This document shows positions 848-11,083 of a stretch of 64,000 nucleotides of DNA, piece after piece. The notes below the pieces were generated by a model. That model saw only the letters and a list, made by a program, of their open reading frames with translations. It searched no databases and had not been told where the DNA came from. Position numbers and translations under genes: made by a program. How positions within the stretch are numbered: position 1 is the stretch's first letter; each line of letters starts with the position of its first letter. The stretch covers positions 51,165 to 115,164 of the forward strand of contig CANQWD010000004.1 in NCBI GenBank assembly GCA_947627465.1, written 5' to 3'. The stretch is from an uncultured Clostridia bacterium. Its GTDB lineage: Bacteria > Bacillota > Clostridia > Oscillospirales > Ruminococcaceae.

Positions 848-1219
848 ATGGGTATTTTACTGCTTAAACTGGCACTGCAAAATTTGTTATTTTTCGGGCT
901 GCATTTTGAGGGAAAAAATATGTTCCCAAAACAGCTGTCGTCAAAAGAGGAGGCTGAATGTATCAAGGAAATGTCGGAGGGAAACGAACAAGCCCGCAAT
1001 AAGCTGATAATTCATAATTTGCGGCTGGTGGCTTATATCGTAAACAAAAATTATCCCGACGCCCGCGACCCCGACGACCTTGTGTCTATCGGAACTATCG
1101 GACTTATCCGCGCCGTTGAGACTTTTGATTTCCGAAAGGGAAATCAATTCAGTACTTATGCTTCAAAATGTATAGATAATGCTATTGCACACTTTCGGAA
1201 ACATTTCCTTGCAGCTTAA
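848..1219 (+). CDS. sigK: Sigma-K, N-terminal half (interrupted gene)
   Basis: This encodes the first part of the late mother-cell sporulation sigma factor. Residues 1-24 are a hydrophobic pro-sequence (LLLKLALQNLLFFGLHF) that in the family is removed by SpoIVFB. Then come FPKQLSSKEE and region 2 (ARNKLIIHNLRLVAYIV, DLVSIGTIGLIRAVETFD, FSTYASKCIDN). The match to sigma-K ends at CIDN (codon 1178-1180); the last 12 codons (AIAHFRKHFLAA) are read into the inserted element. Regions 3-4 are missing here and found at 7933-8292. Joining at the shared TAAT gives a 233-residue protein that aligns to B. subtilis SigK across the junction without a gap. Alone, this half lacks -35 recognition and should be inactive. 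Confidence 0.9.
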   Translation: MGILLLKLALQNLLFFGLHFEGKNMFPKQLSSKEEAECIKEMSEGNEQARNKLIIHNLRLVAYIVNKNYPDARDPDDLVSIGTIGLIRAVETFDFRKGNQFSTYASKCIDNAIAHFRKHFLAA

Positions 1220-1248
1220 ATGCCTGTCAAAGCGGGCGTATATCAATA

Positions 1249-2892
1249 TTATTCGCACGCCGCCTTGATAAAAATATGCGCGTTTTCTCCGTCCCACTCT
1301 ATGCGGTCGATTATCTGCCGCATAAAATTGCGCTTCTCAACTACCGTTAAGCTATCGAAACACTCTTTGAATTTTTTCAGCGAGTTCAGAATATTGTCGA
1401 TAAGATTATCTCGCTCGATATTTTCCGCGCCGACAGACACAAGTTCGGTAATCTCTTTTTTGAGCGTTTTTATTTCTCCGTCAAGGCTCTCTATTTCGGC
1501 TTTAGTGTAAGAGACCATTGCCGCGCTGTCTTCGGATTTGGCGAGAGCTTCCATTAAATTAGCGATCATTTTTTGCTTTACGGCGATCTGCTTTTGCAGG
1601 TCGGATATTTTTTCGGAATTGTCGGCGGCGCTGTTATTCGAATGTTTCATCAATAAATTCAACTGCTTTCCCACAACCGAATTCGGCTGACTGAATTTCA
1701 GGATCTCGTCGCAAATTAACTTGTCTAGCACGTTTCCGTTGACGTTTTTCATCTCGCATTTCGATTTGCGCGAACGCTCTTTAAATTCGCACATATAGCA
1801 AAATGTTTGAGTGCTGTCGGCGTTTTTTCGCTTGTTGGAATTGACGCGCGGGCGCATTATACTGCCGCAATTCGCACAGCGGACAAGTCCCGAAAAAATG
1901 CTGATCTCGTTTCGCACGGGACGGTAAAACGTTTTGTGCGCGTTCTCTCCTATCAAATTCTGCGCCTTTATCCATACGTCCGAGGGGATAATTCCCGTGT
2001 GCTTTCCCAGTGCGATTATCCATTCCTCCGGGGGAGTTCGGCGCTGCTGTCTGCCGGTTTGAGCGGTTCGGCGAAACGGCATAAGACCGCGCTTGCCGTC
2101 CGTTTCGGACAGCTCGAAGCAAACGCTACTTGAAAGGTCGTTGAAATAATCAATAGCGGATTTATCGGCAATACAATAAACGGGGTTTTTCAGAATATCT
2201 TTGACTGCCCGCAGGCGAAATTCGCGCCTCTCGCGGGTCTTTATATCGTGTTGAATAAGCCAAGCTGCGACTTTTGTCATTGACTGAAATTCCAAGAATT
2301 TTTCGTAGATCATTTTAACGGTTTTTATTTCGGCGGGCACTTGTTTTAACTTATACGCGGAGCGTTTTTTGCCCTCGCCGTCGATTATCTCCGTTTTTTC
2401 ACCGACATACCCGAGCGGCGTCACACCGCCGAGCCAGCGCCCGGTTCGCGCCAGCAAAATAAGATTATCGCGTACTCTTTCGGCAATGGTTTCGCGCTCC
2501 AACTGCGCGAAAACCGCCGCTATATTCATCATTGCTCTGCCCATTGAGGTCGAGGTGTCGAACTGCTCCTTTATGCAGATAAACGCGGTGTGCATACCGT
2601 TCAGCTCTTCGATAAGGTTCGCGAAGTCGCCGACGTTGCGGCTTATCCTGTCCAAGCGGTAAACGACTATGCAATCGAAAGGAGCTTTTTTCGCTTCGGT
2701 CATCATCGCGCGGAACTGCGGTCTGTCAAGGTTTTTCGCGGAAAATCCCTCGTCTTCGTAAATAAAAATCTCATTGTCCGCCGCTTCGGGGAAATGACTT
2801 GAAATGTACTCTCGGCAAAGCTGTATCTGGTTTCCTATGCTCTCGCCTTTGCCCGTGAATTTCGATTTTCTGGAATATATAGCGGTCTTCAT
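1249..2892 (-). CDS. Large serine recombinase (SpoIVCA-type), sigK element
   Basis: A 547-residue large serine recombinase. It has an N-terminal catalytic resolvase domain (about 1-145) with the nucleophile serine in AIYSRKS and the conserved DGFSAKNLDRPQF and YRLDRISR motifs. A recombinase domain follows (LGYV near residue 162 onward), then a zinc-ribbon with CANC and CYMC cysteines (about 335-385). A C-terminal coiled coil (about 410-500) is the type that controls synapsis in phage integrases. It is convergent with the sigK 5' half and ends 29 bases from that half's stop, the usual integrase position next to the attachment site. AAAGGAG precedes ATG. By family and location it should excise the element to rebuild sigK; the closest role model is SpoIVCA / C. 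difficile CD1231. Confidence 0.92.
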   Translation of the reverse strand: MKTAIYSRKSKFTGKGESIGNQIQLCREYISSHFPEAADNEIFIYEDEGFSAKNLDRPQFRAMMTEAKKAPFDCIVVYRLDRISRNVGDFANLIEELNGMHTAFICIKEQFDTSTSMGRAMMNIAAVFAQLERETIAERVRDNLILLARTGRWLGGVTPLGYVGEKTEIIDGEGKKRSAYKLKQVPAEIKTVKMIYEKFLEFQSMTKVAAWLIQHDIKTRERREFRLRAVKDILKNPVYCIADKSAIDYFNDLSSSVCFELSETDGKRGLMPFRRTAQTGRQQRRTPPEEWIIALGKHTGIIPSDVWIKAQNLIGENAHKTFYRPVRNEISIFSGLVRCANCGSIMRPRVNSNKRKNADSTQTFCYMCEFKERSRKSKCEMKNVNGNVLDKLICDEILKFSQPNSVVGKQLNLLMKHSNNSAADNSEKISDLQKQIAVKQKMIANLMEALAKSEDSAAMVSYTKAEIESLDGEIKTLKKEITELVSVGAENIERDNLIDNILNSLKKFKECFDSLTVVEKRNFMRQIIDRIEWDGENAHIFIKAACE

Positions 2893-3020
2893 TTTACTGC
2901 TCCTTTCTGCGGTTATTTTAGATTATAATATTTTTATGGAAGATATGTCTAAAAATGCGTTTCGTGTAATTATGTACAAACTCCGCCGCATATTATAAAA
3001 ATGCCAAGGAGTTGACAGCA

Positions 3021-3215
3021 ATGTCCAAGTCTCAGAAAATAAACGTTATTATACATTTGCCCGAGGACAAGAGATCACTTGAAGCGCTTCAAGAGAAAAC
3101 GAACGAGCTGTTCTGCAAAATCGTGGAAAAGAAGTTAAAAAACGCCGGTCTCTCCTACAAAGAAAGAGCCTATGTGGTAAAGAAGATCATCGAGAATTTG
3201 AAATCCGCTGCATAA
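3021..3215 (+). CDS. Small helical protein of the sigK element; candidate recombination directionality factor
   Basis: A 64-residue protein, predicted almost entirely helical and basic, with no domain I can name. ATG 3021 is chosen because AAGGAG (3006-3011) lies 9 bases upstream; a TTG at 3012 is in frame but overlaps the end of that site. The gene is divergent from the recombinase and shares its upstream region. In C. difficile the skin element encodes a small protein (CD1234) that acts as directionality factor for excision. Size and position suggest the same role here, but I see no sequence proof. A CATATTAT box upstream (about 2987-2994) could be a sigma-E -10, weakly. Alternative: a small DNA-binding regulator of the recombinase. 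Confidence 0.6.
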   Translation: MSKSQKINVIIHLPEDKRSLEALQEKTNELFCKIVEKKLKNAGLSYKERAYVVKKIIENLKSAA

Positions 3216-3221
3216 TTTTAA

Positions 3222-3349
3222 GGCAACACCGCGCGCGAAACGCGGTCTTTGTGCGGTGTTGCTTGAACAAAAAAACGCGGAAGAAGATTCTCCGCGTTTT
3301 TGTTTGCGTAAAAAGATCGAAACGCGGGAATTTAAACGTTCCCGCGTTT
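3222..3349. terminator. Three consecutive hairpins between convergent genes
   Basis: Three inverted repeats follow one another. GGCAACACCGC pairs with GCGGTGTTGC (3222-3262). AAAACGCGGA pairs with TCCGCGTTTT (3272-3300). AAACGCGGGAA pairs with TTCCCGCGTTT (3320-3349). The middle one has A and T runs on both sides, so it can terminate in both directions. They separate the 64-residue gene from the mannanase 3' end. The last two share an AACGCGG core, which suggests duplication. Confidence 0.65.
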
Positions 3350-3380
3350 CATTTGCCATTATGTTATTTTGTGCTTGCGA

Positions 3381-6300
3381 TTATCCGGGATAGCAGCAGC
3401 ATACGGAGTAAACCGTGATGCCGTCGTCCTTTGCTCCGACATTGATCCTGTCGAGGGATCCGAAATCGGAACCAAACGCGCTTACCATATCCTTGTAGCT
3501 GAACTTCGCATAATTGTGACCGTTGGCAGTGCCGTTTTCAAACGACTGAACCTTTGCCCAATTTGCGCCGCCCGACCAGCTTTGCAGAATAAGCTCAAGA
3601 TCGGAACCGGTGTACTCTACATAGAAGTAGCTGTCAGAAGTAATGGAGCTTGCCTCGAATTTGCCGCCATTCTTTGCAAGGTCAATGCTTACTGCCTGAC
3701 CCCACGCGCCGCAGCTCGCTTCGCCCCAGAATGCCGATACATAAGGATCGCTTTCCGTGGGCTTGTCATCGTCCTTATCGTCGTCCTTGTCGTCATCCTT
3801 GTCGTCATCCTTGTCGTCATTGCCGCTGTCGCCGCCGGTTACATAACTTGCGCTGTAAACAGTTATAGCGTCCTCAATTGCCGCAATATGGAATCTGTCA
3901 AGCTTGCCGCTGAAATCGGAAGAACCGAATTCGCTTACCATATCTGCATAGCTGAACTTAGCATACTTGTGACCGTTTGCGCTGCCTGTTTCATAAGGAG
4001 TTACACGCGCCCAGCCTTCAGCGCCCGACCAGCTTTGAAGGATCAATCCAATGCTGCCGTCGCCTTTGTATTCAACATACACATAACCGTCTTTGGTAAA
4101 TACAGACGGATCGAAGTCGCCGCCGATCTTCTTGGTATCAAGAGATACCGCTTGATTCCATGCGCCGCAGGACGCATTGCCGCTGAAGAAGTTCGTTGTT
4201 TCTTCCTTATCGTCATCGCCTGTGGGAGCGATAACTTCTGTTTTGAGCGTTGCTCCGCATACCGTACACTCGGTATGCTTAGAACCGCTTGTTGTTGCGG
4301 TGGGCTTCTTATCAACAATCCAATCGCTTTCGTTGTGTCCCTTTGCGTGAATGGTTTCGGTGTAAGTGTCGCCGCAGTCGCCGCAAGTATACGTTATAAT
4401 TCCATCTGTTGTGCAAGTCGCTTCCTTAGTGATCTTGGAAGTATAATTGTGAGTGTGGGGCTTTATGGGATCTACAAACTCGCGCTTCTCGGTATGACCG
4501 CATCTTTCGCACTTGTAGATCGAATAACCCGCTTCGGTTTCGGTAGGCTCTACCTTGCTTGAGAACTTCATATCGTGTCCAAGAGAGGGAATAGCCTCTG
4601 TATATGTATCGCCGCATTCACATGTAAATGTAACGGTACCCTGTTCGGTGCAAGTTGCCGATTTTGTTACCTTAGACGTATAGCTGTGTACATGAACGTC
4701 GCCGCCCTTATTAACGGTAAGCGTAAATACCGCTTCTTTATCGTTGCTAAATTTGAATACGAGATCATAAGTACCGTTATCAAGTGTTGCAAGATATTGA
4801 CCGTTTATCATTGTCTGACTGCCGTTAACGGAGTAATCAACACCGCCTACAAGCGTCTTATTGCCGTTGGAAACGGAATCTACGCTCTTTCCGTTAAGCA
4901 CAAGATCAACTCTGACGCCGGAGGTTTTGCCGTCATAAGTTCCGCTTGTATTGATGATGTATGGATCAAGGTCGATAGGCTTATCGTCCTTATATCCCAT
5001 AATGTTATCTAAATAATATACGCCTGTTGTAACACTGCCGCCGTTGCCCGCATAAAGCGAGAACTGGTTGATTTTGGTCGTATCAAGCTTTGCGTTGCTG
5101 CTTTCCTGCCAACTTGCGAGCTTGAACTCGTCAAACGGAACCTTAATGGTTTTAACACCCGTAAAATCTACCGTGATGTTTTTCTCGAAATATTTGTCGT
5201 TAGCGTCGCGCAGCTGCAAAGTGAAGCTGTTGCCCGAACCGTCGCCCTCGATATCAAACGAAATGCCTTTGAACGAGCTCATATCTTTAGCCGCTATCGG
5301 GTGGTTAACGCCGCAATATCCATCGCTGCCTGCAACGTTATAGGTAAATGCCAAAGCCTTGCTGCCGTTTTTGTCAACAAGCTTAAGACCTACCTCATTA
5401 CCGCCCTCATTCTTGGAATATGCCGCCCAAAGATCGTCGTCGCTCTCATATTTCTCGAACGTATCAAGCTCGTCGAGACCAGTCGTATCGGAAACGGCAA
5501 CGTTCAATATGCTGTCCTCGCCCTCATAGAAGTCAAACGTGATCTCTTTCGCGCCCGTTTTCAAGGTCTTGAGGAAAGACGCGCTGATAGTAACCGTATC
5601 GCCGTCTACAGTGTAATCGGAATTTTCGGAGAGTTTCTTGCCGTCAAACAAAAGTCCTCTAAACTCGCTTGTTTTCTTGTCCATTGTAATAACAATGTCA
5701 CTGCAGGACTTGGGGTTTATGTCGACAGAAACGTCCGTAGGAGAAATTGTGGGTTTGGGAAGCTGGCTGTCCATTGTTATAACGGAGAACTTAGGAGAGT
5801 TGCCCGCCGTCATAATGATCTTCGCGCTGTGCTTTGTAAGCTCTTTGTCCTTAAGGAACGAAGACTTGATTTTAATGGTGTTTCCGTCCTTTGTGTAGTT
5901 GGAGCTTGAAAGCGTTTTGCCGTCAAATTCAACGCCGTTTATACTGCCCTCGTTGACTGTTACTTTTACTGTAACATCCTGTCCCGAAGCTCTGTCATAA
6001 GTATATTCGGACTGATCTGTGATGTTGATAATGTTCTTTTCGTTCATTATCTTAGCGGTGCCCATAAGAAGTTTTCTTGTGGACTCCGTCGCCGTTCCCT
6101 CGGGACCGTAAACGGTGTAGCCGTCATAGTCTTGATAAAGGCTTCCGTCATCGAGGTAAGAAGCGATCATCCAATAGTTGAAGCCCTGATATTCGATATC
6201 CTCGAACGTCTTGCCCGTAATTATATCCATCCACTTCTGATAAGTAGAATCGCGCTTGGTTTTATCGGTAAGACCAAATTCTTCAAAGATAACGGGCTTA

Positions 6301-7379
6301 TTGTATTTTTGTGTGGTTTCGGCATGGCGCTTGATCCAATTCGTATCGTCCTCGCCGCTGTCGCCGAATTTCAAGCCCCATTGATCCACATACATGTGAG
6401 GCGTACCGAAGTCAACGGTTTTCAAAGACATCAGCTTATCGAAATCCGCGCCTTCATAGCCGGAATAGGGGTAGTTGGGAAGTCCGGAAGAATTTATTTC
6501 GTTTCCGCTCAGATTGTAAAATCCCTCGTCGCCGACAGATACCATGTGATTGGGATCAAGAGATTTTACATAAGCGCTCATTTCCTTTACCCAATTATAA
6601 AGTATATCGTCCTCGCAGCCGATATCGGCAGGACAGCGCGGCTCGTTGGAAAGTTCCCAAGCAAATACTGCCGAAGAATTCTTTAAAGTCTCGCCGGTAT
6701 AATAATTTTTGTGGTTAAGGAGAGTTTTAACGTAGTCTTTATACCAGCCTTTCATTGTTTCGTTAGTATAAAACTCACAACAATCGGTTGTTTGTACTTT
6801 ACCGGAGGATACCGATTTACCTTGCAGCATCTGATACCATTTTACATACTGACCCATGCCGCCGAACGCTTCCCAATAGTTGGTGAACGTAATGATAAGC
6901 TTCATATCATGTTCTTCGGCTTGTTTGATAATGTAATCGAGGCGGCGCAAACCGTCCGCGCCCTCGTTGACCTTGGGCTTTTTCTCGTCGTCATCCCAAT
7001 ACTGGAAGTATATGCCGTCTTTTTGACCGTCACCGTCGTTATTGCCTTCAAACACAGGATAACCGTTTTTGTCTACTTTGCCGGTTTTTCTGCCGACATC
7101 AAGGTTGCCCCAAATTCTTATTACCTTAAGTCCCATATCCTTTGCGTTGTCAAATACATTTTTGACTTCGCTGTCGGACTTGTACGTAAGATAATAGCAG
7201 TTAGTGCCTCCATAGTAGTACGGACTTCCATCGCACATAAAGCACCCGTTGTCTGCATAAACAAAATCTTCGGGATAAGTTTGTGCAGAAGTAATGCGAT
7301 TTATCAACGGAATTGATGCTGCCACAACTACTGCTGCAACTGCGCCCGAGACAAACCGTTTCATGAATGTTTTACCCAC
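3381..7379 (-). CDS. Secreted multimodular GH5 endo-beta-1,4-mannanase
   Basis: A 1332-residue exported enzyme. The signal peptide is at about 1-32. A GH5 (subfamily 7 mannanase-like) catalytic domain spans about 38-450, with GGTNCYYL, the acid/base in WELSNEPR (E246), GTPHMYVDQWG and the nucleophile in FEEFG (E367). Two X2-type Ig-like modules follow (about 455-540 and 545-635), then a CBM11/CIA30-like beta-sandwich (about 640-790) and a third X2 module. Next are Cys/His repeats of the CxxC...H(T/S)Y type (about 890-1060). Two duplicated C-terminal 100-residue modules (SCGAW...QAVS, LILQSWSG) are joined by an Asp/Lys linker and are probably carbohydrate binding. The GTG start at 7379 is preceded by AAGGAGG, 8 bases away. 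It is cargo inside the sigK element. Mannan is the likely substrate; glucan activity cannot be excluded. Confidence 0.88.
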   Translation of the reverse strand: MGKTFMKRFVSGAVAAVVVAASIPLINRITSAQTYPEDFVYADNGCFMCDGSPYYYGGTNCYYLTYKSDSEVKNVFDNAKDMGLKVIRIWGNLDVGRKTGKVDKNGYPVFEGNNDGDGQKDGIYFQYWDDDEKKPKVNEGADGLRRLDYIIKQAEEHDMKLIITFTNYWEAFGGMGQYVKWYQMLQGKSVSSGKVQTTDCCEFYTNETMKGWYKDYVKTLLNHKNYYTGETLKNSSAVFAWELSNEPRCPADIGCEDDILYNWVKEMSAYVKSLDPNHMVSVGDEGFYNLSGNEINSSGLPNYPYSGYEGADFDKLMSLKTVDFGTPHMYVDQWGLKFGDSGEDDTNWIKRHAETTQKYNKPVIFEEFGLTDKTKRDSTYQKWMDIITGKTFEDIEYQGFNYWMIASYLDDGSLYQDYDGYTVYGPEGTATESTRKLLMGTAKIMNEKNIINITDQSEYTYDRASGQDVTVKVTVNEGSINGVEFDGKTLSSSNYTKDGNTIKIKSSFLKDKELTKHSAKIIMTAGNSPKFSVITMDSQLPKPTISPTDVSVDINPKSCSDIVITMDKKTSEFRGLLFDGKKLSENSDYTVDGDTVTISASFLKTLKTGAKEITFDFYEGEDSILNVAVSDTTGLDELDTFEKYESDDDLWAAYSKNEGGNEVGLKLVDKNGSKALAFTYNVAGSDGYCGVNHPIAAKDMSSFKGISFDIEGDGSGNSFTLQLRDANDKYFEKNITVDFTGVKTIKVPFDEFKLASWQESSNAKLDTTKINQFSLYAGNGGSVTTGVYYLDNIMGYKDDKPIDLDPYIINTSGTYDGKTSGVRVDLVLNGKSVDSVSNGNKTLVGGVDYSVNGSQTMINGQYLATLDNGTYDLVFKFSNDKEAVFTLTVNKGGDVHVHSYTSKVTKSATCTEQGTVTFTCECGDTYTEAIPSLGHDMKFSSKVEPTETEAGYSIYKCERCGHTEKREFVDPIKPHTHNYTSKITKEATCTTDGIITYTCGDCGDTYTETIHAKGHNESDWIVDKKPTATTSGSKHTECTVCGATLKTEVIAPTGDDDKEETTNFFSGNASCGAWNQAVSLDTKKIGGDFDPSVFTKDGYVYVEYKGDGSIGLILQSWSGAEGWARVTPYETGSANGHKYAKFSYADMVSEFGSSDFSGKLDRFHIAAIEDAITVYSASYVTGGDSGNDDKDDDKDDDKDDDKDDDKPTESDPYVSAFWGEASCGAWGQAVSIDLAKNGGKFEASSITSDSYFYVEYTGSDLELILQSWSGGANWAKVQSFENGTANGHNYAKFSYKDMVSAFGSDFGSLDRINVGAKDDGITVYSVCCCYPG

Positions 7380-7412
7380 CGCGTTTTCCTCCTTAACTTA
7401 AAAACACACTTT

Positions 7413-7514
7413 AGTAATCGTTTTCAGTTAACCTAATATTAACTGTGATTTTATTTTATCACAGCTTTTGATTTAAGTCAATATAATTTTCAAAAAATGT
7501 GTAATCGTTTTCAG
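7413..7514 (-). promoter_or_regulatory. Mannanase promoter with two cre/LacI-type operators and a palindrome on the -10
   Basis: On the minus strand the -35 TTGACT (7477-7482) and -10 TAAAAT (7454-7459) are 17 bases apart. Two copies of TGAAAACGATTAC lie on either side: 7501-7514 matches the CcpA cre consensus TGWNANCGNTNWCA fully, and 7413-7426 differs at the last base. A palindrome CTGTGAT-N8-ATCACAG (7444-7465) covers the -10. This points to repression by CcpA or a LacI-family sugar regulator, plus a second regulator. It shows ordinary nutrient control of a gene sitting inside a sporulation-excised element. Confidence 0.7.
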
Positions 7515-7917
7515 TTTTTCTCTGTTTGTTACAATTTTCCAACTCTATCTTTGTTGATTATTGCTATATGTTATTTTCAAAGTAGAAAATTTTAGGTAAA
7601 TGCTCATAATATTTACCTAATCTGTTAGGTAAATATCAGCTTATAATTTACTTAAATTATAGAGCTACATTACTTAAAATATTTTTGGCAGTATTTCTTT
7701 GTACCTCGCATGACGGAGAAAACAGCCGAATATATTATTCATATAATCACCGCGTCTTGTTCTGTTGATCAAGAGCCGCTGAACGCTTGTCCGATCTCCA
7801 AGGGGTAAGCTTTTCAAAATCGGACGAGAACAAAAGTGCGCGGGCGGGGTATTTTGTTCCGACGACCCTACATTATTATATAAGCGGCGCTGCAAGCGTT
7901 TCCGTTGATGTGTAATA
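7515..7917. other. About 400 bases without a supported gene at the right end of the element
   Basis: The part to about 7660 is AT rich with short repeats of TTTACCTAA / TTAGGTAAA, including the inverted pair TAGGTAAATGCTCATAATATTTACCTA. The remainder has higher GC content. A 73-codon open frame on the minus strand (7674-7895) has no ribosome binding site and I do not accept it as a gene, although this stretch could be a dispersed repeat. The right attachment site is expected at the end, near 7920. Confidence 0.4.
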
Positions 7918-7932
7918 GCTAATCAAATAAAA

Positions 7933-8292
7933 ATGCATTTTCGCAAAATCAAGCATCAGCAAAACGAGCTTAATTTATTCGATCCTATCGAAAACGACGG
8001 CGAGGGAAACGCTCTGACTTTGGCGGATATTTTCGCGAGCGAAATTAACGTTGAAAAGAACGCGGAGCTTACCATTTACTCCGAAAAGCTGTACAAATTC
8101 ATTAAAGAAGAACTCACCAAACGCGAGCGGGAGATAATATGCAAGCGCTATGGGATCCCCGATCTGGACGGAAGCGTATGCAAGCCCATGCCGCAGCGCG
8201 AGATCGCCAAGGAAATGAGAATTTCACGAAGCTACGTTTCAAGGATCGAAAAAAAGGCGCTCCAAAAGCTTAGGGCGCGGTTTGAGGAATAA
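7933..8292 (+). CDS. sigK: Sigma-K, C-terminal half (interrupted gene)
   Basis: This encodes sigma-K from the end of region 2 through regions 3 and 4. It has MHFRKIKHQQNELNLFDPI, DGEGNALTLADIF, then the -35 recognition helix-turn-helix REREIICKRYGI...QREIAKEMRISRSYVSRIEKKAL. The coding frame is open upstream through ANQIK to the inferred junction at 7920-7923. There is no ribosome binding site before ATG 7933, so the half is likely translated only after excision joins it to 848-1180. The protein lacks any region 2 by itself. It corresponds to SpoIIIC of B. subtilis. Excised product: 233 residues, against 241 in B. subtilis. Confidence 0.92.
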   Translation: MHFRKIKHQQNELNLFDPIENDGEGNALTLADIFASEINVEKNAELTIYSEKLYKFIKEELTKREREIICKRYGIPDLDGSVCKPMPQREIAKEMRISRSYVSRIEKKALQKLRARFEE

Positions 8293-8455: not shown

Positions 8456-11083
8456 ATGAAATGGATGGGACTTAACGATCTGCGCGAGAGTTATTTGAAG
8501 TTTTTTGAGAGCAAAGGGCATTTGAGACTGCCCAGTTTTCCGTTGGTGCCGCCCGCGGACGACAACTCTATTTTGCTGATAAACGCGGGTATGACGCCGC
8601 TTAAAAAGTATTTTCAGGGTATCGAGGAGCCGCCGCGCCACCGTGTGACGACCTGTCAGAAGTGCATTAGAACGCCCGATATCGAGAATGTTGGACACAC
8701 TTCGAGACACGGCACTTATTTTGAGATGCTCGGCAACTTCAGCTTCGGCGACTACTTCAAGCATGAGGCTATTTCGTGGGCTTGGGAGTATCTTACAAAG
8801 GTGCTTGAGATACCTGAGGAAAAGCTCTGGGTCACTATTTACGAACAGGACGACGAAGCGGGCGACATCTGGGCGAACGAGATAGGCGTGCCGCGCGACC
8901 GCATCGTAAAGCTCGGCAAAGCCGATAACTTCTGGGAGCACGGCAGCGGTCCCTGCGGTCCGTGTTCCGAGATCCATTTCGACCGCGGCGAGAAGTACGG
9001 TCCTTTAAACAGCTTTGAGGAAGCCGAGGAAAACGACCGCATTATCGAAATCTGGAACAACGTTTTCACGCAGTTCGATAACGATGGCAAGGGCAACTAC
9101 ACTCAGCTTGCCACAAAGAATATAGATACGGGAATGGGTTTGGAACGTCTCGCGTGCGTAATGCAGGGCGTGGACAACCTTTTTGAAGTCGATACCGTTA
9201 AGAATATAATGGGCAAGATCTGCTCGATTATCGGCGTGAATTATCACGACGACGATAAAAAGGACATCTCTATCCGAGTTATCACCGACCACATTCGCTC
9301 CACAACGTTTATGGTGGGCGACGGTATTCTGCCGTCCAACGAGGGCAGGGGCTATGTTCTGCGCCGCTTGCTCCGCAGAGCCGCTCGTCACGGCAGACTG
9401 CTCGGTTATCACAACGCGTTCCTGTACGAGGTTTGCGACACCGTAATCGACGAGAACCTGTCCGCTTACCCCGAACTCGGCGAGAAGCGCGCCTATATTA
9501 AAAAGGTTATCCAAACCGAGGAGGAGAGCTTCTCCAAGACGATCGACAAGGGCACGGAAATTCTCGGCGAGATGATAGAAAACCTCAAGAAAACGGGCGA
9601 GAAAACCCTTAAGGGCGAGGACGTTTTCAAGCTTCACGATACTTACGGATTCCCCGTAGACCTCACAAAAGAGATACTTCACGAAAACGGCTTTGAAGCG
9701 GACGAAAAGGGCTTCGAGGAGTGTATGAAAGTCCAGAAGCAGACCGCGCGCGAGAACAAAAAACTCGGCGGCGGCTGGGATAACGCGAAAAATTCCGAAC
9801 TGGACAAGTTTACCACCGAATTTGTGGGCTACGATACCCTTGAATTCGAAACGAAAATACTCGCGATCACCAAAAACGGCGAGATTTCCGATTTGTGCGG
9901 CGCGGGCGACGAAGTCGGCGTTATTATCGAGAAAACTCCGTTCTACGCGGAAATGGGCGGACAAGTCGGCGACCGCGGCTCTATATGCAAGGGCGGTTCG
10001 GACATTATCGAGATAAGCGACACCAAGAAGCTCGGCGGCGGACAATTTATGAGCTTCGGCAAGGTTATTTCGGGCGGATTTTCCGTTAATGACGGCGTGA
10101 CCGCGAGAGTTGACGCGAACTCCCGCAAGGCTACCGAGAGAAATCACACCTGCTGTCACATTTTGCAGGCGGCGCTTCGCGAGGTGCTCGGCGAACACGT
10201 TCATCAGAGCGGCTCTTATGTAGACCCCTACCGCTGCCGTTTCGACTTCACGCATTTCAGCGCGATGACGAAAGACGAAATAGCGCGGGTTGAGCAAGCC
10301 GTAAACGCCGAAATTCTGAAAGCGGTTCCCGTAGTTACCGAGGTTCTGCCGATAGAAGAAGCGAAGAAAAAGGGCGCCATGGCGCTGTTCGGCGAGAAGT
10401 ACGGCGACACCGTGCGCGTTGTTTCCGTGGGCGATTACTCTACGGAATTCTGCGGCGGTACGCACCTCAAAAATTCCGCCGAAGCGGGCTTGTTTAAGAT
10501 AGTAAGCGAAAGCTCTGTAGCAAGCGGCGTGCGCCGTATCGAAGCGGTTACGGGCGCGAATACGCTTAATTTACTGTACGATACTCTTGAAACCGTGGAT
10601 AAGGCGGCTGCGGTTCTCAAAACGCAGAACTCCGAGCTTGTGAACCGTTTGACAAGCGTGATGAGCGAACTTCGTGAAAAGGACAAGAAGATAGAGCAAA
10701 TGCAGCAGGCGGCGGCTAACGCTCAACTCGGCAATCTGGACGAGACGGACGTCCTCGGCGTGAAAGTCATCACGGCGGCGTTTGACGGCACGGGCGCGGA
10801 CGGCTTGCGCAAGATCGGCGACGGCTTGGCGGACAAGTACGACTGCTTTATCGCGGTTCTCGCGGGCACTAACGAGGGAAAGAGCAACATTCTTTGCAAG
10901 TGCTCCAAGAGCGCGGTGGCAAAGGGTGCGAACGCGGGTACTATCGTTAGAGAAGTCGCGGCTGTCGCGGGAGGAAAAGGCGGTGGAAAGCCCGATCAGG
11001 CTATGGCGGGCGTGCCCGACGCTTCCAAGATACCCGAAGCGCTGAAAGCTGTCGGCGAGATAGCGGGCAAATATATCAAGTAA
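8456..11083 (+). CDS. alaS: Alanyl-tRNA synthetase
   Basis: An 875-residue class II aminoacyl-tRNA synthetase that charges tRNA-Ala. It shows the N-terminal aminoacylation domain (LRESYLKFFESKGH, RHGTYFEMLGNFSFGDYFK, GSGPCGPCSEI, TGMGLERLACVMQ). The editing domain has its zinc ligands (RNHTCCHILQAALREVLG and FCGGTHLKNSAEAG). A coiled coil (LREKDKKIEQMQQ) leads to the C-terminal glycine-rich tRNA-binding domain (GGKGGGKPDQAMAG). Length matches the family. AAAGGA precedes ATG. It is transcribed away from the sigK fragment by its own promoter. Confidence 0.98.
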   Translation: MKWMGLNDLRESYLKFFESKGHLRLPSFPLVPPADDNSILLINAGMTPLKKYFQGIEEPPRHRVTTCQKCIRTPDIENVGHTSRHGTYFEMLGNFSFGDYFKHEAISWAWEYLTKVLEIPEEKLWVTIYEQDDEAGDIWANEIGVPRDRIVKLGKADNFWEHGSGPCGPCSEIHFDRGEKYGPLNSFEEAEENDRIIEIWNNVFTQFDNDGKGNYTQLATKNIDTGMGLERLACVMQGVDNLFEVDTVKNIMGKICSIIGVNYHDDDKKDISIRVITDHIRSTTFMVGDGILPSNEGRGYVLRRLLRRAARHGRLLGYHNAFLYEVCDTVIDENLSAYPELGEKRAYIKKVIQTEEESFSKTIDKGTEILGEMIENLKKTGEKTLKGEDVFKLHDTYGFPVDLTKEILHENGFEADEKGFEECMKVQKQTARENKKLGGGWDNAKNSELDKFTTEFVGYDTLEFETKILAITKNGEISDLCGAGDEVGVIIEKTPFYAEMGGQVGDRGSICKGGSDIIEISDTKKLGGGQFMSFGKVISGGFSVNDGVTARVDANSRKATERNHTCCHILQAALREVLGEHVHQSGSYVDPYRCRFDFTHFSAMTKDEIARVEQAVNAEILKAVPVVTEVLPIEEAKKKGAMALFGEKYGDTVRVVSVGDYSTEFCGGTHLKNSAEAGLFKIVSESSVASGVRRIEAVTGANTLNLLYDTLETVDKAAAVLKTQNSELVNRLTSVMSELREKDKKIEQMQQAAANAQLGNLDETDVLGVKVITAAFDGTGADGLRKIGDGLADKYDCFIAVLAGTNEGKSNILCKCSKSAVAKGANAGTIVREVAAVAGGKGGGKPDQAMAGVPDASKIPEALKAVGEIAGKYIK

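What the first reader, a model, noticed from the sequence alone, without database searches (positions are those of the whole stretch)
848..8292. sigK split by a 6.7-kb skin-like element carrying a secreted mannanase
Seen directly: a sigma-K N-terminal half and C-terminal half in the same direction, separated by a serine recombinase, a small protein and a 1332-residue GH5 enzyme. Known: skin elements in B. subtilis and C. difficile are excised in the mother cell to build sigK. New here is a glycan-degrading cargo gene with normal vegetative regulation, in a compact element with almost no phage genes. The cargo would be lost from the mother cell only when sporulation starts.
Basis: partly seen in the sequence, partly recalled or inferred. 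Interest (0 to 1): 0.95.

Follow-up and report, generated by a model that had tools for sequence, protein, structure and literature searches.

The report
Mannanase gene inside a sigK-splitting element
In a bacterium with spore-formation genes, a late spore gene (sigK) is cut in two by a 6.7-kb DNA element that carries a recombinase, its likely helper and the gene for a mannan-digesting enzyme; the element is predicted to be cut out, and the enzyme gene lost, only in cells that are making a spore.

Summary
sigK is split at window 1177-1180 / 7920-7923 by a 6,743-bp element with three genes: a large serine recombinase, a 64-residue protein and a 1,332-residue GH5 mannanase with carbohydrate-binding modules. 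Joining the flanks gives a 233-residue SigK like the intact sigK of relatives; the genome search shows no second sigK. The element's arms form an imperfect dyad (20 of 30 positions; 1 of 20,000 shuffles reaches it), as in serine-integrase attP sites. Among 43 genomes of the genus, all 13 with split sigK hold a whole recombinase of this family and none of 24 with intact sigK does (6 undetermined). The small gene has a conserved mother-cell-like promoter, the recombinase a sigma-A-like one. This repeats the C. difficile skin logic. The mannanase keeps a sigma-A-like promoter and LacI-type operator sites as in relatives, where it sits elsewhere, in genomes with intact sigK. Excision itself was not observed. 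New: one host metabolic gene as payload of a three-gene skin-like element. In relatives, four genomes carry the halves in reverse order around 47-59 kb of chromosome, and two carry arrays of spare sigK 3' halves.

The parts
848..1180 (+). sigK 5' half up to the shared TAAT (open frame runs on into the element to 1219)
1149..1208 (.). predicted attL: sigK arm, TAAT at 1177-1180, element arm with ..CGGAAAC
   Evidence: CGGAA at the same place in 13 of 13 attL sites of the genus (read)
1249..2892 (-). large serine recombinase, 547 aa
2922..2951 (-). predicted sigma-A-like promoter of the recombinase (TAGACA-18-TATAAT)
   Evidence: read by eye
2966..2996 (+). predicted mother-cell-type promoter of the small gene (GTAAT-18-CATATTAT)
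   Evidence: pattern in 13 of 14 homologues, 0.01 expected; pattern drawn up after seeing these regions
3021..3215 (+). 64-aa protein, candidate recombination directionality factor
3381..7379 (-). GH5 mannanase with CBM_X2, CBM11, CBM65 modules, 1332 aa, signal peptide by eye (cargo)
7453..7481 (-). predicted sigma-A-like promoter of the mannanase (TTGACT-17-TAAAAT)
   Evidence: recognisable in 4 of 4 other copies compared
7414..7429 (-). LacI-type operator-like site 1 (AACTGAAAACGATTAC)
   Evidence: the label LacI-type is recalled
7501..7516 (-). LacI-type operator-like site 2 (same sequence)
7891..7951 (.). predicted attR: element arm GTTTCCG.., TAAT at 7920-7923, sigK arm
7924..8292 (+). 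sigK 3' half (first ATG at 7933)

Best explanation
A 6,743-bp element sits inside sigK at what has the form of a serine-integrase attachment site, and its own recombinase, helped by a likely directionality factor, is predicted to excise it in sporulating mother cells, which would rejoin sigK and discard the mannanase gene that the element carries. Shown: the split, the junction by comparison with intact relatives, the attP dyad, the in-frame joined product, no other sigK found in the genome, the co-occurrence of recombinase and split, and purifying selection on split halves in relatives. Predicted: the recombinase is made in all cells from a sigma-A-like promoter; the small protein is made in the mother cell from a sigma-E-class promoter and turns the recombinase from integration to excision; the forespore keeps the element, so the spore line keeps the mannanase. 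Inferred: the mannanase is a resident, sugar-regulated gene captured by the element, because relatives hold it elsewhere and the own genome lacks it at that place.
For: Junction and joined frame: (joined SigK 241.8 bits to NF004471; intact sigK of the nearest relative 237.3). attP dyad 20/30, 1 of 20,000 shuffles. No other sigK. Whole recombinase in 13 of 13 split genomes and 0 of 24 intact, Fisher p = 2.8e-10, 6 undetermined left out; the genomes are related, so p overstates independence. dN/dS of split halves 0.02-0.11 in seven of nine half-by-pair comparisons, all seven from the reversed-order clade or the G011-G012 pair; the two G000-G030 ones are saturated at synonymous sites (pN 0.12 and 0.19 against pS 0.79 and 0.80); recombinase 0.07-0.13. 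Small-protein homologues in 12 of 13 split genomes. Promoter GTAAT-N18-CATAHHAT in 13 of 14. spoIVA in 42 of 43 and spoIIID in 38 of 43 genomes, own included. Mannanase copies of 74-77% identity in three genomes with intact sigK, with a like promoter and at least one like operator each. In the own genome the neighbourhood that flanks the mannanase in G016 and G038 is present without it.
Against: No excised junction was seen: an attP pattern has 0 matches in IMG/VR, and the joined SigK finds nothing above 89% identity among the 120 best-listed of 7,999 scored proteins, so no rejoined allele of this species came to light. The small protein has no known family and no convincing PDB relative. Weaker homologues of it (27-32%) stand in G019 and G021, which have intact sigK and no whole recombinase of this family, so the pairing is not strict. 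Its putative -35 (GTAAT) differs from the TCATAAA that I read before spoIIID, and the window's -10 (CATATTAT) differs by one base from CATAATAT there, so sigma-E is a guess by class. The promoter pattern was drawn up from the sequences it was then counted in, and these include near-copies. Own spoIIID scores 109.0 bits, just under the family's cut-off of 111.5.
Confidence: 0.85

Rival explanations
1. sigK is simply broken by a selfish element; the lineage no longer completes sporulation and no excision is programmed.
For: No rejoined allele is found among public proteins and no attP in IMG/VR. The source is an unnamed draft genome, so spores are unproven. Selection on the window's own halves could not be measured (G000-G030 saturated).
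Against: Split halves evolve under purifying selection in relatives (dN/dS 0.02-0.11 where not saturated). The recombinase is whole in 13 of 13 split genomes, whereas the pieces found behind an intact or spare 3' half are cut short (G028, G022). sigE, spoIVA and spoIIID are present.
Confidence: 0.07
2. The two halves act in trans as a two-part sigma factor (region 2 and region 4 proteins), without DNA excision, as recalled for SigO/RsoA of B. subtilis.
For: Both halves are open frames with whole domains, and in four relatives they lie 47-59 kb apart in the wrong order for a simple insert.
Against: No ribosome-binding site is evident by eye before the 3' half start at 7933. The arm CGGAA is kept at a fixed distance from the core in 13 of 13 split genomes, which would serve recombination rather than translation. 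The recombinase accompanies the split in 13 of 13.
Confidence: 0.04
3. The element is an ordinary integrated mobile island that uses sigK as attachment site; the mannanase is passing cargo and excision is stochastic or stress-driven rather than tied to the mother cell.
For: Recombinase relatives of 43-44% lie beside sigK halves in 3 of 80 IMG/VR loci, so the lineage is an integrase lineage. G030 has a 39-kb version with YqaJ/RecE-like and HerA-like genes. Split and intact states alternate on a tree of the genus, at least 6 changes over 34 scored genomes.
Against: The small gene carries a conserved promoter with a CATA-type -10 close to that before spoIIID, which points to mother-cell timing.
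Confidence: 0.15

Closest known systems
skin element of Clostridioides difficile (CD1231 recombinase + CD1234 directionality factor; PMC5025042, introduction and passages seen)
   Same: sigK split, own large serine recombinase, small protein under mother-cell control (72 aa there), recombinase with sigma-A promoter, att sites with inverted-repeat arms.
   Different: 19 genes there, 3 here; no metabolic cargo gene is described in what I read; C. difficile SigK lacks a pro-sequence, whereas here the N terminus looks like one (comparison with B. subtilis recalled); homology of the small protein to CD1234 was not tested.
skin element of Bacillus subtilis (SpoIVCA)
   Same: Recombinase beside the 5' sigK fragment in opposite direction; excision rejoins sigK (as told in PMC10745906 and PMC5025042, passages seen).
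   Different: 48 kb, phage-like; recombinase itself under sigma-E/SpoIIID there, sigma-A-like promoter here.
22-kb island IV in sigK of a B. cereus group strain (PMC10745906, passages seen)
   Same: Non-phage island in sigK, excised in sporulation, recombinase beside the 5' half.
   Different: 22 kb with restriction-modification genes; no glycoside hydrolase in the passages seen.
gin element in gerE of B. cereus ATCC10987 (PMC5595907, abstract, first results section and discussion read)
   Same: Non-phage element in a late sporulation gene, serine recombinase plus helper (GirC, GirX), predicted cut at a central AA.
   Different: Other gene, 31 genes, three recombinases.
sigK-integrated Alicyclobacillus phage MMB025 (PMC13141910, abstract and passages seen)
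   Same: sigK used as attachment site, with a short shared core.
   Different: Whole infectious phage.

Membership tests
skin (sigK-intervening) elements | lies inside the sigK reading frame and divides it | tested here: met
skin (sigK-intervening) elements | exact removal restores an uninterrupted sigK in frame | tested here: met
   (in silico only)
skin (sigK-intervening) elements | carries its own large serine recombinase beside the 5' sigK part, opposite direction | tested here: met
   in the genus the recombinase is on the same contig within about 3 kb of the 5' half in 12 of 13 split genomes, in G034 on another contig
skin (sigK-intervening) elements | att sites with inverted-repeat arms and a short shared core | tested here: met
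skin (sigK-intervening) elements | no second working sigK in the genome | tested here: met
   assembly 97.35% complete
skin (sigK-intervening) elements | excision happens in the mother cell during sporulation | not testable with these tools
   no reads or cultures; negative searches do not decide it
skin (sigK-intervening) elements | directionality factor under mother-cell control (C. difficile type) | tested here: inconclusive
   promoter pattern 13 of 14, drawn up post hoc; no functional test; homology to CD1234 not tested
prophage | phage structural or packaging genes | tested here: not met
   three genes only; the two non-cargo genes scanned against PHROGs, only the integrase matches

The most novel reading that the evidence does not exclude
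In this genus the sigK recombinase has become a reusable developmental DNA-elimination switch whose payload is host DNA. Here each sporulating mother cell throws out a sugar-regulated mannanase gene. In a sister clade the same switch would pinch off 47-59 kb of core chromosome (holding alr, frr, dxr and his genes in the one genome examined) as a circle, and sigK would be rebuilt on that circle, so that the mother-cell chromosome is split in two at every sporulation.
Probability: 0.3. Interest if true: 0.87.

Novelty: new variant of a known kind. Interest (0 to 1): 0.64.

Why it matters
Skin elements have mostly been seen as phage-derived or phage-like islands whose host value is timing of sigma-K. 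A three-gene version of one recombinase, one small protein and one regulated host enzyme suggests the least that such a device needs, and that it can hold a host metabolic gene. The genus offers a natural series: split, intact, reversed order, and arrays of spare 3' halves. With this series one can ask which parts are needed and whether programmed DNA loss in the mother cell is tolerated for any payload. The recombinase, small protein and defined att sites are also a compact candidate integrase kit.

Tried and rejected
Prophage reading: rejected, no phage genes beyond the integrase. Second sigK: rejected, the full-length hit is SigE. Close relatives of the recombinase in public mobile-element records: about 41% in phages, about 40% over the full length in plasmids (44.5% over 58% in one), 45-47% over most of the length in IMG/VR (52% over a part). 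attP search in IMG/VR: 0. Rejoined allele of the species in a protein collection clustered at 90%: none above 89% in the list. PDB relatives of the small protein: none convincing. A first look for the promoter upstream of spoIVA and spoIIID gave 0 of 30 each. The reason was partly my error, since minus-strand loci were not turned, and partly that spoIVA follows another gene closely in the own genome; spoIIID was then read properly. For dN/dS I compared chosen pairs, not all pairs. One orphan copy, G009_C19, has a small deletion that put my ungapped comparison out of register, and its value (dN/dS 0.37) was set aside. Circularity of the contigs with reversed halves: no end overlap in 4 of 4. 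How the reversed order arose was not resolved. The inner 44 kb of the G037 segment was fetched but not analysed. Lateral import of the mannanase from the G026 lineage: not favoured, the tree puts the window copy with G038 at 81/75 support, although synonymous distance is lower to G026 (1.05 against 1.60). Paper searches; no listed title or abstract speaks of a sigK element with a glycoside hydrolase. Most subscription papers are not held. The window beyond about 11,100 was not examined.
Full report
What is there. The window lies at C4:51165-115164 of a 2.52-Mb, 52-contig genome (97.35% complete). Near its left end sigK is in two parts in one direction, 848-1180 and 7924-8292. Between them lie a large serine recombinase (1249-2892, minus), a 64-aa protein (3021-3215, plus) and a 1,332-aa GH5 protein (3381-7379, minus). 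alaS, named by eye, follows at 8456. The GH5 catalytic part matches mannan-active enzymes in the PDB; its further modules are CBM_X2, CBM11 and CBM65. Its N terminus reads as a signal peptide (by eye).

The site. I compared sigK of the genus across the junction. Intact genes read CIDNQIKM(H/Y)FRK. In the window the 5' half leaves this after TAAT at 1177-1180 and the 3' half enters it at TAAT 7920-7923. Joining the flanks gives an uninterrupted 233-aa SigK that scores 241.8 bits against NF004471; the intact sigK of the nearest relative scores 237.3. Both lie under that model's curated cut-off of 252. The element's own arms, GTTTCCG..TGTGTAATAGC and GCTATTGCACAC..CGGAAAC, mirror each other around the central AA: 20 of 30 positions (one arm length tried), reached by 1 of 20,000 shuffles; the host site has 9 of 30. 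That is the usual layout of serine-integrase sites. The element is 6,743 bp.

No other sigK. The own genome has one full-length hit to the SigK model, which is SigE (361.5 bits to the SigE model).

The recombinase goes with the split. Of 43 genomes of the genus, 13 have a sigK 5' half ending in the element arm. 24 have sigK intact across the site; one of these, G039, was read only. In 6 no 5' half was found. A whole recombinase of 59% identity or more is present in 13 of 13 split genomes and 0 of 24 intact ones (Fisher p 2.8e-10; relatedness makes this too small). G028 and G022 have pieces cut short, right behind a 3' half. G036 holds a 40% relative elsewhere. A scan of named records returned 12 recombinase loci of 57-81% identity. 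Eleven hold a sigK 5' half. The twelfth, of G034, shows none in the 3.5 kb readable on that side; the 5' half of G034 is on another contig. Of the 26 named loci at 48% or less, one, a Roseburia MAG, has a sigK 3' half alongside. Titles of the relatives name Oscillospiraceae or uncultured Clostridia MAGs, some from 'Lapin' (rabbit) or water deer samples. The own genome's record is not named to me.

Still under selection. Where the comparison is not saturated, dN/dS is 0.02-0.11 for the 5' half, 0.02-0.03 for the 3' half and 0.07-0.13 for the recombinase (chosen pairs). For the sigK halves these pairs all come from the reversed-order clade or G011-G012. For G000-G030 synonymous sites are saturated (pN 0.12 and 0.19 against pS 0.79 and 0.80). 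The small gene gives 0.19-0.32 on few changes, with one pair uninformative.

The small protein. A profile search of 8,645 short frames from the fetched loci finds a homologue in 12 of the 13 split genomes; in the exception, G010, the contig ends 386 bases upstream of the recombinase. In the window and nine others it is divergent from the recombinase and close to it; in G030 and G027 it lies 3-4 kb away. Weaker homologues stand in G019 and G021, which have intact sigK and no whole recombinase of this family. The upstream region holds GTAAT-N18-CATAHHAT in 13 of 14 genes, against 0.01 expected from the genomic rate. I drew the pattern from these same regions and many of the genes are close kin. 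The -10 of the G035 clade equals CATAATAT, which I read as the -10 before spoIIID of the own genome; the window's CATATTAT differs by one base, and the -35 read before spoIIID (TCATAAA) differs from GTAAT. The window's TGTACAAAC between the boxes fits a recalled SpoIIID consensus with one mismatch; I did not test this. The recombinase instead has TAGACA-18-TATAAT, and the G030, G023 and G010 copies have close matches to TTGACA/TATAAT; in the reversed-order clade I saw no such promoter by eye. In C. difficile the recombinase CD1231 is sigma-A-driven and the 72-aa directionality factor CD1234 is under sigma-E and SpoIIID (PMC5025042, passages). The layout here repeats that logic. No sequence kinship to CD1234 was tested.

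The cargo. Full-length copies of 74-77% identity occur in G038, G016 and G026, all with intact sigK elsewhere. In G038 and G016 the gene follows a purine-nucleoside-phosphorylase-like gene (name by eye). In the own genome that neighbourhood exists at C18 without a mannanase. A promoter of the form TTGAYT-17-TAVRAT and at least one LacI-type operator-like site are found before all five copies compared (the label LacI-type is recalled). In the window both sites read AACTGAAAACGATTAC, and within two mismatches the motif occurs 11 times in the genome against 1 in the reversed control. What lies next to the other sites was not examined. A tree puts the window copy beside the G038 copy (81/75), and G038 is also the nearest genome by sigE plus spoIVA. 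So the payload looks like a resident, sugar-regulated gene that moved into the element. How it moved is unknown.

Relatives show two further arrangements. First, in G031, G035, G037 and G040 the 3' half lies 47-59 kb before the 5' half in the same direction on one contig. In G035 the segment between them is core chromosome by its gene list; nine of its proteins were scanned and match alr, ilvD, an amino-acid-kinase family member, frr, dxr, hisG, hisD, a HisA/HisF family member and a peptidase M3. attL-attR recombination there would release that segment as a circle carrying the joined sigK. The standard order is seen on one contig in G000 and G030. The other 7 of 13 split genomes have the halves on different contigs or lack one. 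The contigs are not circular by end overlap. G013, with intact sigK in the neighbourhood the joined gene would have, falls inside this clade, but on sigE alone. Second, G019 holds an intact sigK and seven further 3' halves, and G009 four; TTTCC of the element's P arm stands at its place in 8 of these 11. In G019 the seven differ from its own intact 3' half by dS 0.75-1.2 but dN 0.02-0.03, so they are not recent duplicates. I read them as arrivals from different lineages, each having carried a working replacement 3' half. G028 and G022 fit this, with a cut-short recombinase right behind a 3' half.

What was not shown. No rejoined or circular form was found. Spore formation by the species is inferred from genes: spoIVA and a spoIIID match just under its cut-off are present in the own genome, and an M50-like frame 48% identical to one I took by eye for SpoIVFB.

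Novelty. Skin elements of 22 kb and 48 kb and a 19-gene one are described, as is the 31-gene non-phage gin in gerE, and a whole phage in sigK of Alicyclobacillus (PMC10745906, PMC5025042, PMC5595907, PMC13141910; parts seen). In the searches no listed title or abstract describes a glycoside hydrolase as cargo of a sigK element or a three-gene element. I therefore call it a new variant of a known kind.

Noticed in passing
L041/L042 (G035:C2:37243 and 85148); also G031, G037, G040: sigK 3' half lies 47-59 kb before the 5' half, same direction, with core genes between (read in G035); excision would put joined sigK on a chromosomal circle.
   Followed up: partly
L052-L057 (G019), L049-L051 (G009): Seven and four extra sigK 3' halves, 8 of 11 with TTTCC of the element's P arm upstream; near-identical protein in G019 but strong synonymous divergence: likely replacement halves brought by successive elements.
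   Followed up: partly
L069 (G028:C122:5615-6272): A cut-short recombinase directly behind an intact sigK, opposite direction.
   Followed up: partly
L291, L292, L293 (IMG/VR): Recombinases of 43-44% identity adjacent to sigK halves in viral contigs.
   Followed up: partly
L155 (Roseburia MAG, 3238-5294): A 37% recombinase directly beside a sigK 3' half; the lone case among the 26 distant genome-contig loci.
   Followed up: no
window 848-940: The SigK N terminus is hydrophobic and resembles the B. subtilis pro-sequence (recalled); an M50-like protease frame is at G000:C1:194017.
   Followed up: partly
L237 (G038:C1:42929-51448): Two tandem mannanase copies behind a purine-nucleoside-phosphorylase-like gene.
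   Followed up: partly
L042:7504-10110 (G035): Biotin synthase (Pfam) and, by eye, bioY and birA-like genes between the sigK 5' half and the recombinase: another possible metabolic payload.
   Followed up: partly
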